From the NCBI GenBank assembly GCA_001303705.1, contig LJUI01000177.1:1-7326 (forward strand): a stretch of DNA of 7,326 nt. Direction: 5' to 3'. Shown one piece after another: positions 29-7,249 of the stretch. The stretch's first letter is position 1. Each line of letters begins with the position of its first letter. Made by a program: the position numbers and the translations under genes. The notes beneath the pieces are model-generated. The model did not search any database. It saw only the letters and a program-made list of their open reading frames with translations, and was not told the origin of the DNA. The stretch comes from a candidate division TA06 bacterium SM23_40 (GTDB lineage Bacteria > LJUI01 > SM1-40).

Positions 29-64
29 CACTTCATCGCTCTATTTCGAAAGACGGGGGTGCCA

Positions 65-1753
65 ATGAAGGGATACCTCATAACCGGCATCGTAGTGGGC
101 GCGGCCGTGGCCCTCGCCTGCGCGAACGGAGGTGCAGCGCAGACACTGCCGGATCAGGTAGACGAGCGGCTCCGGGCCCGGCTCGAGGCTGCCGGAGTCC
201 CGGCGAGGGCGGTAGTGGGTGACGAACTCGTCTATGCCTCGATCGCTTTGCCGCGTTTCTACGAGATCCGTACCTATCGGCCAGCCTGGAGTGACGACAG
301 TGGACCGACTGCAGACACGGACAGCCTCGTTGCGGCGATCCGGGACGCAGATCGCGAGGGCCTGGAGTCCGAACACTATCATCTGGCGGAGATCGTGGAG
401 ACGCTCAAGGAGATCCGCGAGAACCAAGCTCTTCGAAGACCACTCGACCCCCGAAGGCTGGCAGACCTCGATCTGTTGCTCACCGACGCGTTTCTGCTGT
501 ACGCGTCCCATCTTCTCGCCGGACGCGTCAACCCGGAGACGATCGATCCGGAATGGCACGCCAACCGGCGCGACTCTGATCTTTCCGTTGTCCTGCAGGA
601 CGCCCTCGCCTCCGGGCGTTTCCGCGACACCCTGGAGCAACTGCTTCCCCATCACGTCGGGTACAGGAGATTGCGGCAGACTCTCGCGCAGTATCGCGAG
701 CTGGCGGCCCAAGGGGGATGGCAGAAGGTGCCGGAAGGTCCCAAGATGGAGAAGGGGGATCGCGGTGACCGAATCCGCCTCCTGCGCAGCCGGATGGAGG
801 CTGCTGGCGCTCCTGTCCGCACGGCGGCCAGCCATGACGATCTCTTCGACGAGGCACTCGAACAGACCGTGCGCACCTTCCAGAGGCGATACGGGCTCGA
901 TGTCGATGGCGTAGTGGGACAGGCCACACTGGCGGCGCTCAACATCCCGGTCGAGGCTCGGATCGACCAGATCGAGGTGAATCTGGAGCGGTGGCGGTGG
1001 CTTCCCCAGGAACTCGGGCCGCGGCACGTCATCATCAATATCGCCAACTTCGACCTGGATGTTGTCGAGGGCGGCCGGACGGTGCTCTCAATGCTCGCAA
1101 TAGTGGGAAGGCCCTACCGGCGAACGCCCATCTTCAGCGACAGGATGACCTATCTCGTGCTGAATCCCCACTGGCACGTCCCTACGAGCATCGCCGTGTT
1201 GGACATCCTGCCCACGCTGCGCACCGACGCCGGTTACCTGGCCAGCCAGAACATGAGGGTGTTGCAGGGCTGGGGCTCCCAGGAGCGCGAGATCGATCCC
1301 CGGTCGATCAATTGGTCCGAAGTCTCCGCCGCCAACTTCCCCTACAGGTTGCGGCAGGACCCGGGGCCGGGTAACGCCCTGGGCCGTGTGAAGTTCATGT
1401 TCCCCAATAAGTTCAACGTATATCTCCATGACACGCCGGCGCGAGACCTTTTTGCCAGGACGCGGCGCACCTTCAGCTCTGGCTGCATTCGGATCGAGAA
1501 GCCGATCGATCTGGCGGAGTATCTGCTGCGGGGCGATCCGCAGTGGACGCGGGAGAAGATCCTCGCCGCTATCGACAGACGCGTCGAACAGACAGTGCGG
1601 TTACCAGAAGCGATCCCGATTCACCTGCTCTACTGGACCGCCTGGGCTGATGAGGACGGATCTATTCAATTCCGGAACGATATCTATGACCGAGACAGAC
1701 TCGTGCTCGAGGCGCTCCGCAGTGGACCGCCCGAGCCAACGGAAGAGAAATAG
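65..1753 (+). CDS. L,D-transpeptidase, YcbB/LdtD type (murein 3-3 cross-linking)
   Basis: A 562-aa exported enzyme that by family would form 3-3 (mDap-mDap) peptidoglycan cross-links in the periplasm. Residues 1 to about 26 are a Sec signal peptide ending GGAAQ. A helical scaffold region follows (about 50-225), then a PG_binding_1 domain (about 228-296, with FQRRYGLDVDG), then the YkuD catalytic domain (about 320-490). The catalytic signature is visible: H455 in YLHDTP, then SSGCIR with nucleophile C474 and R476. The long insert between LNPHWHVP and FMFPNKFNVYLHD matches the capping loop of YcbB enzymes. E. coli LdtD has the same domain order at 615 aa. ATG at 65 is chosen because GGGGG lies 5 nt upstream and the signal peptide begins there. 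GTG at 59 is an in-frame alternative, and the frame is open to the left edge. It forms an operon with the M15 peptidase 11 nt downstream. Function is near certain at family level. Confidence 0.93.
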   Translation: MKGYLITGIVVGAAVALACANGGAAQTLPDQVDERLRARLEAAGVPARAVVGDELVYASIALPRFYEIRTYRPAWSDDSGPTADTDSLVAAIRDADREGLESEHYHLAEIVETLKEIRENQALRRPLDPRRLADLDLLLTDAFLLYASHLLAGRVNPETIDPEWHANRRDSDLSVVLQDALASGRFRDTLEQLLPHHVGYRRLRQTLAQYRELAAQGGWQKVPEGPKMEKGDRGDRIRLLRSRMEAAGAPVRTAASHDDLFDEALEQTVRTFQRRYGLDVDGVVGQATLAALNIPVEARIDQIEVNLERWRWLPQELGPRHVIINIANFDLDVVEGGRTVLSMLAIVGRPYRRTPIFSDRMTYLVLNPHWHVPTSIAVLDILPTLRTDAGYLASQNMRVLQGWGSQEREIDPRSINWSEVSAANFPYRLRQDPGPGNALGRVKFMFPNKFNVYLHDTPARDLFARTRRTFSSGCIRIEKPIDLAEYLLRGDPQWTREKILAAIDRRVEQTVRLPEAIPIHLLYWTAWADEDGSIQFRNDIYDRDRLVLEALRSGPPEPTEEK

Positions 1754-1764
1754 GAGACACTCAG

Positions 1765-2772
1765 ATGCTTCGAACTCCTGACAGATCGGCTCCTGCCGCG
1801 GTGTGCTTCGTCGTCGCGTCGGCCTTCATCCTGGCCGCAGCTGGCGGCGCCTCGGGTCGAACGGATGGCGGCTTCTCCCCCGAGAAGGCCAGTTTGGCCT
1901 TACGGGTCGGAGATCTCGTGGTGCCCTACCGCGTCTTCGCCATCTCCGCCATGCCCGAAGAGATCGTACCGCTCGAAGTTCTCGGTTCCGGGGATTTCGT
2001 ATCCGGAGGGGAAGAGCGCTATCTCCTCGAGCCTTCGCGCGACGGGATCGCCCGGAAAGGGCCCGGGCGATGGCAGTGGCAGGTCCCGAAGGAGGCAGGC
2101 CTCTACCCGATCCGAATAGTGGATACGGAGGCCGCTGACACCATCACCCTCAATGCTTTCGTAATCGTGCCCTACGATCAGCTGGAGGGCGAATACCTCA
2201 ATGGCTACCGAATCGGCAGATACCCTGCGATACCTCTGAAGCGACTACCGATCTATAAGCCACCCCGGGGCTTCATCGAGGTAACAGAGGAGAACGCGGA
2301 GACCTACGTCGCGCCGCACTTCCGGCTGAGCCAGTTTCTATGCAAACAGGGTGGAGATTATCCGAGATATTTGGTTCTGAAGGGGAAGCTGCTCCTCAAG
2401 CTGGAGCTCATACTCGAGAAGGTGAACGAAAAAGGCTATCCCTGCACTACTCTGCACATCATGAGTGGGTACCGTACACCCTACTACAACAGAGTGATTG
2501 GAAACGTCAAGTACAGCCGCCACATCTACGGCGGCGCGGCGGACATATTCATCGACGAGGACCCCAGGGATGACATGATGGACGATCTCAACAAGGACGG
2601 CAAGATCGATTACCGAGATGCTGCCGTCCTCTATGGCATCATCGATCGAATGTACGGGAGATCCTGGTACGAACCCTTCGTCGGCGGCCTTGCCAGATAC
2701 AAGAAGACCGCCTCACACGGGCCGTTCGTCCATGTGGACGTGCGAGGCTTCCACGCCAGGTGGGGAGACTGA
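1765..2772 (+). CDS. M15-family murein peptidase, MepK/YcbK-like, with EF-hand-like loop
   Basis: A 335-aa exported zinc peptidase. Residues 1 to about 30 are a signal peptide. About 40-150 form a beta-rich N-terminal domain of unknown role. The C-terminal 150 residues are the M15 (Peptidase_M15_3/DUF882-like) domain: SGYRTPYYN, then S251-R-H253 and D260 of the SxHxxGxAxD motif, then H323-V-D325. H253, D260 and H323 are the expected zinc ligands. E. coli MepK (YcbK) cuts cross-links and is encoded next to the LdtD gene; the same order here supports a murein hydrolase role, though a D,D-carboxypeptidase is also possible. Between D260 and H323 lies D274-LNKDGKIDYR-D285, with acidic or Asn residues at positions 1, 3, 5, 9 and 12 of a calcium loop, as in EF-hands and dockerins. 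The start is supported by GGAGA at 1753-1757, 7 nt before ATG, overlapping the upstream stop codon, so the two genes are probably co-translated. Confidence 0.88.
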   Translation: MLRTPDRSAPAAVCFVVASAFILAAAGGASGRTDGGFSPEKASLALRVGDLVVPYRVFAISAMPEEIVPLEVLGSGDFVSGGEERYLLEPSRDGIARKGPGRWQWQVPKEAGLYPIRIVDTEAADTITLNAFVIVPYDQLEGEYLNGYRIGRYPAIPLKRLPIYKPPRGFIEVTEENAETYVAPHFRLSQFLCKQGGDYPRYLVLKGKLLLKLELILEKVNEKGYPCTTLHIMSGYRTPYYNRVIGNVKYSRHIYGGAADIFIDEDPRDDMMDDLNKDGKIDYRDAAVLYGIIDRMYGRSWYEPFVGGLARYKKTASHGPFVHVDVRGFHARWGD

Positions 2773-3733: not shown

Positions 3734-4633
3734 TTACGGTTGGGCCACCACGAATGTGAACTCGTCCCGGTCGTACACCACCGCAGGCGGCACACCGATT
3801 CCGGACCGATACACATAGGTCCCCTGTGGCGCCGTCGCCGGCACCTCGCGATCCAGGTGGCGCTGTGTGACAAAGTGGGCGGGCAGGGTGTACCGGTCCG
3901 GGCCGCATAGACCCAGAATGCCACCCCGCGGCAAGATAACCTGCGTCAGGATCCAGAGCGCCTCGGGCTGGGCCCACCGGTTGATGAGAGTATAGGTGAC
4001 GCCGAGCTCACCGCCCGGCAGGACCTCAGTGGTATCCGGCGTGAGGTACAGGGTCAGGTAGTCTTCCTGATCAAAGAAGTGAGCACCCATGTCGCTGCGG
4101 GTCCCGTCTTGATCGAGGGAGTCGGGATGTCCGGAATCGATGCACGGCGAACCCCAGAGGAGACGGTAATCCCCCTTCTCTGCCAACACGAATACCGGAT
4201 CGGCATCGATGTTTCCGCCGCCGGGCCACCCGCCTTCAACATCGGAATAGCTGATCGTGATCGAACTAGACGTGTCGAGCGATACCTCTGGCCCCGTCAG
4301 CGCGCTATCACCCCAGAGGATCGAGTTCATGACGGTGATTGAGGAATTCCCGTAGCAGTCGACCCCGCCCCCCTGAGCGGAGGCCCTGTTTTCTGCAACG
4401 GTGCTACCGGAGAGCGTCATCGTAGAATGATCGAGGCAATGGATACCGCCGCCGCGCTCGTTGGCCGTGTTTCCCGTGATCGTATTCCCGGCGAGCGTCA
4501 TCGATGAGTGGCGCCAGCAATGGATGCCGCCGCCGCACTCGGAGGCGGCGTTTAACGCAATGATATTGTTGCGCACCTCTGCAGAAGAATAGGCCCAGCA
4601 GAGAATCCCAGCGCGATTATGCCGCCCCCCCAC
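3734..4633 (-). CDS. Beta-helix surface protein, C-terminal half (frameshifted)
   Basis: This frame continues the beta-helix of the gene upstream at 4552-5541 and is very likely the same gene in a second frame. True homology begins near 4615 (GILCWAYSS), directly after the G7 run at 4625-4631. GTG at 4633 is only the first available start, and MGGRHNRA is probably not a natural N-terminus. It holds the rest of coil 8, coils 9 and 10 beginning GGGIHC, and coil 11 beginning GGGVDC. A typical end of such helices follows: SYSDVEGGWPGGGNIDADPVF, then GDYRLLWGSPCIDSG and a DxDGTRxDMGA element. The last 105 residues or so form a beta-rich, probably Ig-like domain (LPGGELGVTYTLINR to DEFTFVV). Alone it lacks a signal peptide and would not be exported. 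The role is probably a cell-surface or secreted binding protein; no catalytic site is identified. Confidence 0.75.
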   Translation of the reverse strand: MGGRHNRAGILCWAYSSAEVRNNIIALNAASECGGGIHCWRHSSMTLAGNTITGNTANERGGGIHCLDHSTMTLSGSTVAENRASAQGGGVDCYGNSSITVMNSILWGDSALTGPEVSLDTSSSITISYSDVEGGWPGGGNIDADPVFVLAEKGDYRLLWGSPCIDSGHPDSLDQDGTRSDMGAHFFDQEDYLTLYLTPDTTEVLPGGELGVTYTLINRWAQPEALWILTQVILPRGGILGLCGPDRYTLPAHFVTQRHLDREVPATAPQGTYVYRSGIGVPPAVVYDRDEFTFVVAQP

Positions 4634-5541
4634 TCGGCCGAGTTCGCTGTGATCCTATTCCCTATGATGGCCGGCGAGACACCGTGACAACGGATCCCTC
4701 CTCCGATCACACCGGCATTTCCCGTGATCACGTTGCCGAGGATGGCAGGAGAATGCAGAGACCAACAGCAGATCCCCCCGCCCTCCCAGGCGACATTTGC
4801 CGCGATGATGTTATTCTCGATGATCGAGCTAGACCTTCCACAGGCAACTCCACCACCGTGGTCATACGGTGCCCTGTTCTCGATGATTTCGTTGTCCCTT
4901 ATGGTGGGCGAGGCGTCCCAACAATAGACCCCCCCGCCAATCAGCAAGGCGGTGTTGCCCGTGATGAGGTTGCCCGTGATGAAGGCCGAGGCGTCGTGTG
5001 CGCAGCAGATCCCCCCGCCGAGATCTGCCGTGTCTTCCATGACGGTGTTGCCGGCAATCGTGGGGCTCGACTCTCCCTCACAGTAGATCCCTCCTCCCCA
5101 TGCTCCGCTCCTGTTCGCGGTGATTGTGTTCCCCAAGATCGAGGGGGAGGATGCAAGGCAGTAGATTCCTCCGCCGTTGCCGGTCGCGATCCACCCGTTG
5201 CTGATCGTGAAGCCCCGCACGACCGCGTCAGAGCCTTCTCCGGTGTGGAAATAGAATCCTCGATGGGGTTCTGATGCAGTGCCCTGACAATCAATGATGG
5301 TTAGATCAGGCCCATTCTCGGACACCAGGAGTAGCGCCTTGCCGTAGAAATCGATATCTCGGTTGCCGTCGCCCGTGTATGTGCCATCGGCGACGAGCAC
5401 TGTATCCCCGCCCACTGCCGCGTCGATCCCCGCCTGGATTGTCGGGTACTCGAGCGGAACGTGGATCACAGCGCCAGACGCGATCGATATGAGGCCGACC
5501 ACAGCATGAGATGCTGCCACCCACGACCACACCTGCTTCAT
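4552..5541 (-). CDS. Beta-helix surface protein, N-terminal half (frameshifted)
   Basis: Starts at ATG 5541 with a signal peptide (about residues 1-24, MKQVWSWVAASHAVVGLISI and on). The usual cap of right-handed parallel beta-helix proteins follows: IHVPLEYPTIQAGIDAA, GDTVLVADGTY and LTIIDCQG. Then come seven coils of about 23-27 residues with the pattern GGG[IV]xCxxxSSPxIxxNxIxxN. Every coil has a Cys two residues after the GGG[IV] Ile/Val. The eighth coil breaks at GGG near 4625, after which 20-odd residues (from IALGF on) do not fit the repeat and end at 4552. A purine-rich ribosome binding site, GGAGGGGG, lies at 5559-5552. One extra base at the break would join this to 3734-4633 as a 602-aa protein. 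It would be secreted or surface-exposed; pectin-lyase folds include glycan-binding and glycan-cleaving proteins, but no active site is evident. Confidence 0.8.
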   Translation of the reverse strand: MKQVWSWVAASHAVVGLISIASGAVIHVPLEYPTIQAGIDAAVGGDTVLVADGTYTGDGNRDIDFYGKALLLVSENGPDLTIIDCQGTASEPHRGFYFHTGEGSDAVVRGFTISNGWIATGNGGGIYCLASSPSILGNTITANRSGAWGGGIYCEGESSPTIAGNTVMEDTADLGGGICCAHDASAFITGNLITGNTALLIGGGVYCWDASPTIRDNEIIENRAPYDHGGGVACGRSSSIIENNIIAANVAWEGGGICCWSLHSPAILGNVITGNAGVIGGGIRCHGVSPAIIGNRITANSAEWGGGIIALGFSAGPILLQRCATISLR

Positions 5542-5858: not shown

Positions 5859-5887
5859 TTGACCCGAGGCCTCCACAGGATTATACT
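5859..5887 (+). promoter_or_regulatory. Sigma-70-like promoter of the GIY-YIG/DUF6884 operon
   Basis: TTGACC (5859-5864) and TATACT (5882-5887) are separated by exactly 17 nt, and each matches 5 of 6 consensus bases. Transcription would start near 5894, leaving a leader of about 105 nt before ATG 6000. This is the best promoter match I found in the window. Confidence 0.6.
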
Positions 5888-5963: not shown

Positions 5964-5999
5964 CTGTCGACCATCGCCTGAACCAGGAGGTCATCTGCG

Positions 6000-6704
6000 A
6001 TGCCGAAGACATATCAACAGATAACCGATCGAGTCTACACTCTGGTCGAATCCCTGCCTCGCTACAATCACGAAACACCCGCGAGTCACTTCCCCACCAA
6101 CGGCGTCTACCTCTTCTTCGAACGTGGCGAGGTTGTGCAGAGACGCGGCAAGATCCTCCACCGCATCGTCAGGGTGGGCACTCACAAGAAGGACGGCAAG
6201 CTCAGAGACCGGATCCATCAACATTTCGGTACTGCCCGCCCTCTCGGAGGGAACAAGAACGCGAGCGTCTTCCGTAAGCACCTGGGCGGCGCGCTCTTGG
6301 CGAAGTTGAATCCGGAAGATCCCCGCCTGGACCGCTGGCTGACGCACATGTCCCCTACGTTCCCCGAAGTCGAAAAGATGGTGAGCCTTCAGCTGCGGTT
6401 CAACTTTGCCTTCACCTGCATCCGGGTCAACAGGACGAAGGAACGCCTCGCCCTGGAACGCAGCCTCATTGCTCTCCTCGCGCAGCACCCGTTGGGCGAG
6501 CCGTCGACACGGTGGCTCGGCAGATATGCCACGATCGACGCGATCCGAGGCAGCGGTCTCTGGAACACGCAGCATCTGAGCGCTGCTCCTCTCAGCGCTG
6601 AAGAGCTCACGCGCCTCGAACAGTTGATCAAAGCCTCCCGTGCGAAAAGACGGAGTACTCGTCCGAAGAGGCGAAGCACTCGTGCAAAGGGAAGGCGCAA
6701 GTGA
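6000..6704 (+). CDS. GIY-YIG-like nuclease with basic C-terminal tail
   Basis: A 234-aa, probably cytoplasmic protein. A GIY-YIG fold is indicated by G35-V-Y37 (GIY position), R58-V-G60 (YIG position), LRDRIHQHF with R69 or R71 as the catalytic-arginine candidate, and ALERSLIALL with E153 as the metal-binding Glu candidate. The spacing between GVY and RVG is longer than in minimal domains and the Tyr of YIG is replaced by Arg, as in divergent family members. Such enzymes cut one DNA strand in repair, restriction or mobile elements. Residues 211-234 are a Lys/Arg-rich tail with a 7-residue repeat (KRRSTRP, KRRSTRA), likely to bind nucleic acid. AGGAGG at 5985-5990 stands 9 nt before ATG. The stop overlaps the next gene's GTG by 4 nt (GTGA), indicating coupled translation. 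Family call is fairly sure; substrate unknown. Confidence 0.78.
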   Translation: MPKTYQQITDRVYTLVESLPRYNHETPASHFPTNGVYLFFERGEVVQRRGKILHRIVRVGTHKKDGKLRDRIHQHFGTARPLGGNKNASVFRKHLGGALLAKLNPEDPRLDRWLTHMSPTFPEVEKMVSLQLRFNFAFTCIRVNRTKERLALERSLIALLAQHPLGEPSTRWLGRYATIDAIRGSGLWNTQHLSAAPLSAEELTRLEQLIKASRAKRRSTRPKRRSTRAKGRRK

Positions 6705-7249
6705 AAGGCTTCCTGGTCATCATCCCGTGCCGCCAAGCCAAGATCTGGGACAGAGATCCGAAGCGGGGACCGATGCCTGCGTGCGACGCATACACGGGAG
6801 CACCGTTCAAGGTCAACAGAGCATATGCTGAGCGCTTCGGTGAGCGGTGGATCATCCTGAGCGCTAAGTACGGGTTCATCTCTCCGCTGTTCCAGATACC
6901 CGGTCCGTACAACATCACCTTCAAGAGCAAGTCGACGGATCCGGTCTCGCTTTCGACATTGAAACAGCAGATCGCCATCCAGGGCCTGGACCACTTTCCG
7001 ATAGTGATCGGACTCGGAGGCAAAGAATATTGCTGCACGATCAAACAAGCGTTCGCGCCGCTCTCTGGGGAGCTCCGCTTCCCCTTCGCTGGATTACCCA
7101 TCGGCAAGTCCATGCAGGCAATACGGTGCGCTATCGACGACGGGAATCCGTTTCCCGAAGTGGGCCTTGGCGACGTTGAACCGCCGCATCAGCTCTGTGA
7201 TACTTCGGAGCGGTTCGATGATAGGATCGAGTTAGAAGGCATACCATGA
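6701..7249 (+). CDS. DUF6884-like protein
   Basis: A 182-aa cytoplasmic protein of unknown biochemical role. It shows the hallmarks I associate with DUF6884: an N-terminal strand ending in Cys10 with Lys14 (PCRQAK), then P26-A-x-D29-A-Y-T-G-x-P-F36, then W50-IILSAKYG58-F, then PYNITF (69-74), and a late FPFAGLPIGKSMQAI segment (127-141). The conserved Cys, Lys, Asp and SAKYG residues look like an active or nucleotide-binding site, but this is inference. Start is GTG 6701, overlapping the upstream stop, with AAGGGAAGG just before it; the next ATG would cut off the conserved Cys10 region. Coupling to the GIY-YIG protein suggests one process or complex. A role in nucleic-acid modification or defence is possible but not shown. 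Confidence 0.75.
   Translation: MKGFLVIIPCRQAKIWDRDPKRGPMPACDAYTGAPFKVNRAYAERFGERWIILSAKYGFISPLFQIPGPYNITFKSKSTDPVSLSTLKQQIAIQGLDHFPIVIGLGGKEYCCTIKQAFAPLSGELRFPFAGLPIGKSMQAIRCAIDDGNPFPEVGLGDVEPPHQLCDTSERFDDRIELEGIP

What the first reader, a model, noticed from the sequence alone, without database searches (positions are those of the whole stretch)
6000..7249. Coupled GIY-YIG nuclease and DUF6884-like gene: candidate two-gene nucleic-acid module
A divergent GIY-YIG protein and a DUF6884-like protein overlap by 4 nt (GTGA) behind their own promoter, so they are probably made in fixed ratio and act together. GIY-YIG domains cut DNA; the DUF6884-like partner has conserved Cys, Lys, Asp and SAKYG residues that look enzymatic. 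I know of no characterised system with this pair. A defence, DNA-repair or DNA-modification role is inference.
Basis: partly seen in the sequence, partly recalled or inferred. Interest (0 to 1): 0.62.

Follow-up and report, generated by a model that had tools for sequence, protein, structure and literature searches.

The report
Paired nuclease and base-handling gene, defence candidate
Two overlapping bacterial genes make a DNA-cutting (GIY-YIG-fold) protein and a partner related to proteins that handle unusual DNA bases; the same pair occurs side by side or fused in about 17 phyla of bacteria and archaea and is already listed, untested, as a candidate anti-virus system.

Summary
B (6000-6704, 234 aa) and A (6701-7249, 182 aa) overlap by GTGA and share one promoter-like region. 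The pair is not new to databases: PADLOC lists it as the candidate defence system PDC-M57 (B 4e-43, A 5e-10), with no paper found that describes it. Of 80 relatives of B fetched from genomes without regard to A, 73 have A adjacent or fused, in about 17 phyla. Gene order flipped repeatedly, and fusions exist in both orders, so the two parts very probably act together. B lacks a Pfam match, but its confident model fits only GIY-YIG structures. Y37, R71, H75 and E153 are kept; the YIG tyrosine is an invariant Arg. A is a YaaA-fold DUF6884 protein whose CxxxK motif is kept in 81 of 82 partners. The two relatives closest to the window sit beside type I restriction genes and a candidate defence gene. 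Best explanation: a DNA-targeting immune module in which A recognises or processes an unusual base and B cuts; the substrate is unknown. A few fused copies sit in an apparently undescribed operon with QueC, SIR2 and a deoxyribosyltransferase, hinting at 7-deazaguanine chemistry. The window pair belongs to a divergent clade.

The parts
5859..5887 (+). Promoter-like site TTGACC-17-TATACT upstream of the pair
   Evidence: Consensus scan, 10 of 12 matches; no functional evidence
5985..5990 (+). Shine-Dalgarno AGGAGG, 9 nt before the ATG of B
   Evidence: Read directly from the sequence
6000..6704 (+). Gene B (PDC-M57B): GIY-YIG-fold nuclease variant, 234 aa; Y37, R58 (in the YIG slot), R71, H75, E153
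   Evidence: PADLOC PDC-M57B 4.4e-43; AlphaFold2 pLDDT 94.7; the best structural matches are all GIY-YIG proteins; conservation
6701..6704 (+). GTGA overlap: stop of B and start of A
   Evidence: Sequence; the same 4-nt overlap recurs in relatives
6701..7249 (+). Gene A (PDC-M57A): DUF6884, YaaA-fold protein, 182 aa; C10xxxK14, LSAKYG 53-58, Y31, Y70, Y110
   Evidence: Pfam PF21818 3.8e-15; PDC-M57A 5.3e-10 and DpdC 1.3e-5; fold from the A domain of a fused homologue, E. coli YaaA Z 10.4

Best explanation
The two genes make a two-part DNA-targeting immune module. A, a YaaA-superfamily (DUF6884) protein, binds DNA and takes an unusual, modified or damaged base into a CxxxK/LSAxxG pocket, either reading it or chemically processing it. 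B, a GIY-YIG-fold nuclease whose YIG tyrosine is replaced by arginine, then cuts the DNA there. The likely result is destruction of foreign phage or plasmid DNA, in the manner of modification-dependent or base-excision-coupled restriction. Shown here: the genes, the pairing, the fusions, the predicted folds and the residue conservation. Inferred: DNA as substrate, base flipping, cleavage and the defence role.
For: Pairing: 73 of 80 B relatives found by B alone have A adjacent or fused; fusions occur in both orders (A-B in L080, L087 and others; B-A in L024). Gene order changed many times on the B tree while linkage persisted. At least four divergent YaaA-type subfamilies serve as partner, and CxxxK is kept in 81 of 82. 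Nuclease: best structural matches are the AtGRXS16 N-terminal domain, UvrC, Eco29kI and the 5hmC-specific enzyme PD-T4-3; Y37, R71, H75 and E153 correspond by register to Eco29kI Y49, R104, H108 and E142 (PMC1952068). A: YaaA fold; a DUF6884 protein, YfjM, was found among interactors of abasic and ribonucleotide lesions (PMC11701544); DpdC of this superfamily acts on 7-deazaguanine in DNA (PMC12839542). Defence: listed as PDC-M57; the closest relative L022 follows hsdM and hsdS, L023 precedes PDC-S41, L084 precedes a DruE-like helicase. Patchy distribution: 7 of 386 genomes and 1 of 124 in one class. Present on plasmids and viral contigs.
Against: No activity has been tested. The window itself has no other defence genes; its neighbours are cell-wall enzymes and beta-helix proteins. 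Neighbours of 20 relatives are mixed, with only modest defence enrichment over matched control regions. GIY-YIG similarity is structural, with modest Z of 4-5.5, and not found by sequence profiles. Modified-base recognition rests on the partner's superfamily alone.
Confidence: 0.45

Rival explanations
1. DNA repair: A senses or excises a damaged base or ribonucleotide, and B incises the strand as UvrC or an AP endonuclease would, protecting the host's own DNA.
For: DUF6884 protein YfjM was identified among interactors of abasic and RNA-base lesions, and YaaA acts in the oxidative stress response (PMC11701544). UvrC's GIY-YIG domain is among the best structural matches. Some loci show no defence gene beside the module, such as L017 and L071.
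Against: Patchy presence, spread to plasmids and viral contigs, and restriction or defence neighbours in the relatives closest to the window.
Confidence: 0.22
2. The module belongs to mobile elements and serves them (inter-element competition or plasmid stability), sitting with ParB and the anti-restriction protein ArdC.
For: Several alphaproteobacterial and haloarchaeal loci lie next to ArdC and ParB-like genes; a ParB-DUF6884-ArdC order without B occurs on a conjugative plasmid.
Against: Many loci show none of these genes, and neither does the window.
Confidence: 0.15
3. B is not a nuclease; the GIY-YIG fold is a scaffold for nucleic-acid or protein binding, and A is the only enzyme.
For: The YIG tyrosine is an invariant arginine, and sequence profiles do not recognise B as GIY-YIG.
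Against: The other catalytic positions Y37, R71, H75 and E153 are nearly invariant. Hpy188I is a restriction enzyme of the fold predicted to have Lys in the same slot (PMC2630997).
Confidence: 0.1

Closest known systems
PDC-M57 (PADLOC candidate phage defence system; M57A and M57B)
   Same: Both proteins match the PADLOC models and are adjacent
   Different: The window's B lies in a divergent clade set apart by a long, fully supported branch. PDC-M57 has no published function that I could find
Eco29kI, Hpy188I and PD-T4-3 (GIY-YIG restriction enzymes)
   Same: Predicted fold of B and the Tyr/Arg/Glu positions (also the His in Eco29kI); PD-T4-3 is described as a 5hmC-specific cutter
   Different: B has Arg in the YIG slot and a separate YaaA-type partner; sequence similarity is not detectable
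YaaA / DUF6884 proteins such as B. subtilis YfjM
   Same: DUF6884 profile, CxxxK and LSAxxG motifs, YaaA fold
   Different: Here linked or fused to a GIY-YIG-fold protein; below the YaaA Pfam cut-off
Dpd system (DpdC)
   Same: A shares part of the DpdC profile (1.3e-5); DpdC processes 7-deazaguanine in DNA
   Different: No DpdA or DpdB found beside the pair in the window; only a partial profile match
Type IV CBASS and qatABCD (QueC-family defence systems)
   Same: A subset of fused relatives sits in an operon with a QueC-family protein and a SIR2 protein
   Different: A nucleoside deoxyribosyltransferase and the fused DUF6884-GIY-YIG gene in place of the other known components; not present in the window

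Membership tests
PDC-M57 | Match to the M57A model | tested here: met
   PDLC04712 5.3e-10
PDC-M57 | Match to the M57B model | tested here: met
   PDLC04713 4.4e-43 and PDLC04714 8.6e-27
PDC-M57 | The two genes are adjacent | tested here: met
   4-nt overlap
PDC-M57 | Anti-phage activity | not testable with these tools
   Needs an experiment
GIY-YIG superfamily | GIY-YIG fold | tested here: met
   VIA: the six rows shown are all GIY-YIG structures, Z 3.9-5.5, rmsd 3.0-4.5, 83-115 aligned; topology strand-strand-helix-strand-helix. Plain Foldseek gave no significant match, so the support is modest
GIY-YIG superfamily | GIY half-motif with its tyrosine | tested here: met
   GVY, Y37 invariant in alignment A6
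GIY-YIG superfamily | YIG half-motif with its tyrosine | tested here: not met
   RVG, R58 invariant. A known exception exists: Hpy188I has Lys there. So I call B a GIY-YIG-fold motif variant, not a canonical member
GIY-YIG superfamily | Catalytic Arg and metal-binding Glu | tested here: met
   R71 and E153 nearly invariant, with H75 four residues after R71 as in Eco29kI; assignment by register, not by a superposition that I could inspect
GIY-YIG superfamily | Conserved Asn (N154 in Eco29kI) | tested here: inconclusive
   N189 is conserved but its spacing from E153 differs
DUF6884 (PF21818) | Score above the Pfam cut-off | tested here: met
   56.7 bits against 30
DUF6884 (PF21818) | CxxxK and LSAxxG motifs | tested here: met
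   C10xxxK14 and LSAKYG
YaaA (PF03883) | Score above the Pfam cut-off | tested here: not met
   14.1 bits against 29.6; the fold is shared in a homologue
Dpd 7-deazaguanine DNA modification | DpdA and DpdB beside DpdC | tested here: not met
   No such gene among the window's ORFs; the contig is only 7.3 kb
Type IV (modification-dependent) restriction | Cleaves only modified DNA | not testable with these tools
   Needs purified proteins and modified phage DNA

The most novel reading that the evidence does not exclude
PDC-M57 is a restriction system keyed to 7-deazaguanine-type bases: A processes or recognises a preQ0-like base in DNA and B cuts there, and in some bacteria the pair is wired into an operon with a QueC-family enzyme, a nucleoside deoxyribosyltransferase and a SIR2-like effector, a new class of nucleobase-linked immunity.
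Probability: 0.15. Interest if true: 0.82.

Novelty: new variant of a known kind. Interest (0 to 1): 0.55.

Why it matters
The pair is widespread, compact and mechanistically unknown. If it cuts DNA at unusual bases it adds a YaaA-type base handler plus a GIY-YIG nuclease to the known ways bacteria tell foreign DNA from their own, would give DUF6884 and perhaps YaaA a function, and would link the QueC family to a further immune operon.

Tried and rejected
Single-protein search of viral contigs found no relative, but an alignment search did. Phage genome records gave none. Plain Foldseek of B against PDB and viral models gave no significant match; the support comes from the second-look aligner. 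Profile search of B against PDB sequences gave only chance matches. Profile-profile comparison with a small GIY-YIG set was not significant, though its short local match put R71 and H75 in register. The same-phylum distribution test was impossible because only one genome of the phylum is held. A homing-endonuclease reading was rejected: no intron or intein seen, and a conserved partner gene. The defence-island test by matched neighbours and controls was weak: 228 against 54 PADLOC models matched, but one protein can hit many models, so I do not rely on it. A 75-aa domain near L025 was checked as a general third component and found in only 4 loci.

Full report
What is there. The window carries two co-directional ORFs, B at 6000-6704 and A at 6701-7249, with overlap GTGA, a good Shine-Dalgarno before B and a sigma-70-like site at 5859-5887. 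Upstream lie an L,D-transpeptidase, an M15-type peptidase and a beta-helix protein. The window is a whole 7.3-kb contig of a 2.88-Mb draft genome, the only genome held of its phylum.

Names. B has no Pfam or PHROGs match, but PADLOC's PDC-M57B at 4.4e-43. A is DUF6884 (3.8e-15), with PDC-M57A 5.3e-10 and a partial DpdC match 1.3e-5. PDC entries are unpublished candidates from guilt-by-embedding (PMC12988326 and PMC11811056); no held paper names PDC-M57. So the pair is catalogued but uncharacterised.

Pairing. A genome scan with B alone found 276 relatives; 80 were kept. Neighbour analysis found A next to B, on the same strand, or fused, in 73 of the 80; L033, L046, L048, L050, L053, L084 and L094 lack it, and L033 (the same contig as L021) begins inside B. 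Including the plasmid and other-genome loci, the tree set has 41 B>A, 25 A>B, 9 fused and 14 without A within 500 bp; two further fused loci were left out of the tree. Three haloarchaeal plasmid loci in that last group have a DUF6884 gene about 2 kb away. Fusions are mostly A-B; L024, from the window's own clade, is B-A. In 29 whole genomes the strong DUF6884 matches (over 40 bits) number 13, and by coordinates 12 are the copy beside B, so adjacency is not explained by many DUF6884 copies. On the B tree the order label needs 11 changes. Most B>A loci have the same 4-nt overlap. Ten of 14 viral contigs with B also have A.

Clade. The window's B groups, across a fully supported long branch, with Syntrophomonas and other Bacillota, Methanobacteriota, Nitrososphaerota, Poribacteria, Myxococcota and Dependentiae sequences, apart from the larger PDC-M57B clade. 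Relatives span about 17 phyla and both prokaryotic domains, while presence is patchy: 7 of 386 and 1 of 124 genomes. This fits horizontal transfer, as for defence genes, but does not prove it.

Fold and active site of B. The model of the window protein has pLDDT 94.7. Among 402 chains aligned, the rows shown are all GIY-YIG structures: the AtGRXS16 N-terminal domain Z 5.5, UvrC 5.4, Eco29kI 5.0, PD-T4-3 4.1 (that the plant Grx domain and PD-T4-3 have the GIY-YIG fold is from my own knowledge and, for PD-T4-3, PMC10952713). Such Z values are modest by the tool's own caution; that only one fold appears is what persuades. Y37, R71, H75 and E153 are nearly invariant and correspond to Eco29kI Y49, R104, H108 and E142, whose mutants lose all or nearly all activity (PMC1952068). 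The YIG tyrosine is an invariant Arg (RVG); Hpy188I is predicted to have Lys there (PMC2630997).

Fold and active site of A. In the natural fusion L080 (pLDDT 93.9, pTM 0.87) the A domain matches E. coli YaaA at Z 10.4 and AF0587 at 8.5, above the rest. The high pTM of the two-domain chain and the long helix joining them suggest a defined arrangement (inference). CxxxK is kept in 81 of 82 A proteins; the exception is a second A copy in L095. Partners fall into at least four YaaA-type subfamilies by my reading of the sequences and profile scores. Conserved Cys and Lys argue for chemistry rather than mere binding (inference). YfjM, a DUF6884 protein, was found among interactors of abasic and RNA-base lesions (PMC11701544); DpdC hydrolyses a 7-deazaguanine base in DNA (PMC12839542).

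Neighbours. The closest relative, L022, has hsdM (5e-208), hsdS (1.2e-97), an unassigned 475-aa gene, then B and A in one direction. L023 is followed by PDC-S41 (1.5e-108), a Schlafen-type helicase; L084 by a DruE-like helicase. Five fused loci (L036, L068, L080, L087, L063) share QueC (4e-54 in L068), a SIR2-like gene and a nucleoside deoxyribosyltransferase. In L036 and L068 the QueC gene overlaps the fusion by 4 nt. The recent survey of the QueC family describes a cluster with deoxyribosyltransferase neighbours but its main text names no SIR2, GIY-YIG or DUF6884 gene (PMC13329287), so this operon looks undescribed; the search covered open-access papers only. Eight loci lie near ArdC.

Mechanism. 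I favour a two-part DNA-cutting immune module: A presents or processes a base, B cuts. Shown: genes, linkage, fusions, predicted folds, conserved residues. Inferred: substrate, cleavage, defence. Repair is the main rival. A 7-deazaguanine link is the most novel reading and is supported only by the superfamily of A and the QueC operon in a minority of relatives, not by anything in the window.

Noticed in passing
L036 8880-12898, L068 8898-12913, L080 8794-12937, L087 8802-12915, L063 9422-13530: Compact operon: QueC-family gene, fused DUF6884-GIY-YIG gene, SIR2-like gene, nucleoside deoxyribosyltransferase, in distant bacteria (in L063 QueC lies downstream). Looks like an undescribed immune operon.
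   Followed up: partly
L037, L088, L074; L174 1552-7026: On plasmid-like regions the pair lies near ParB-like and ArdC genes; L174 shows ParB-DUF6884-ArdC without the nuclease, so the nuclease may be an optional part there.
   Followed up: partly
L025 9248-9517, L095 10606-11598, L026 10388-10945, L044 8596-9903: A recurrent ~75-aa domain (GDLHRxVGGYPGxNHRMPxCC in L025 and L095) stands next to or fused to the module in four distant loci; possibly a DNA-binding part.
   Followed up: partly
window 3734-5541 (-): A beta-helix repeat protein is split over two overlapping frames (4552-5541 and 3734-4633), with a run of seven C at 4625-4631 in the overlap: assembly error, frameshift or phase variation.
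   Followed up: no
window 59-2772 (+): An L,D-transpeptidase with scaffold and peptidoglycan-binding domains is followed closely by an M15-type peptidase: a cell-wall gene pair.
   Followed up: no
L095 9074-9808 and 10606-11598: Two A paralogues flank one B; the upstream one has lost the CxxxK motif.
   Followed up: no
L084 8689-9530; L044 8596-9460: Extra N-terminal regions upstream of the module that read like helix-hairpin-helix proteins; L084 has a weak DUF6308 match, L044 no Pfam match.
   Followed up: partly
L021 1-1495: In a Dependentiae contig a B-like protein without A has a long extra C-terminal region, and the next ORF also reads like a GIY-YIG protein.
   Followed up: no
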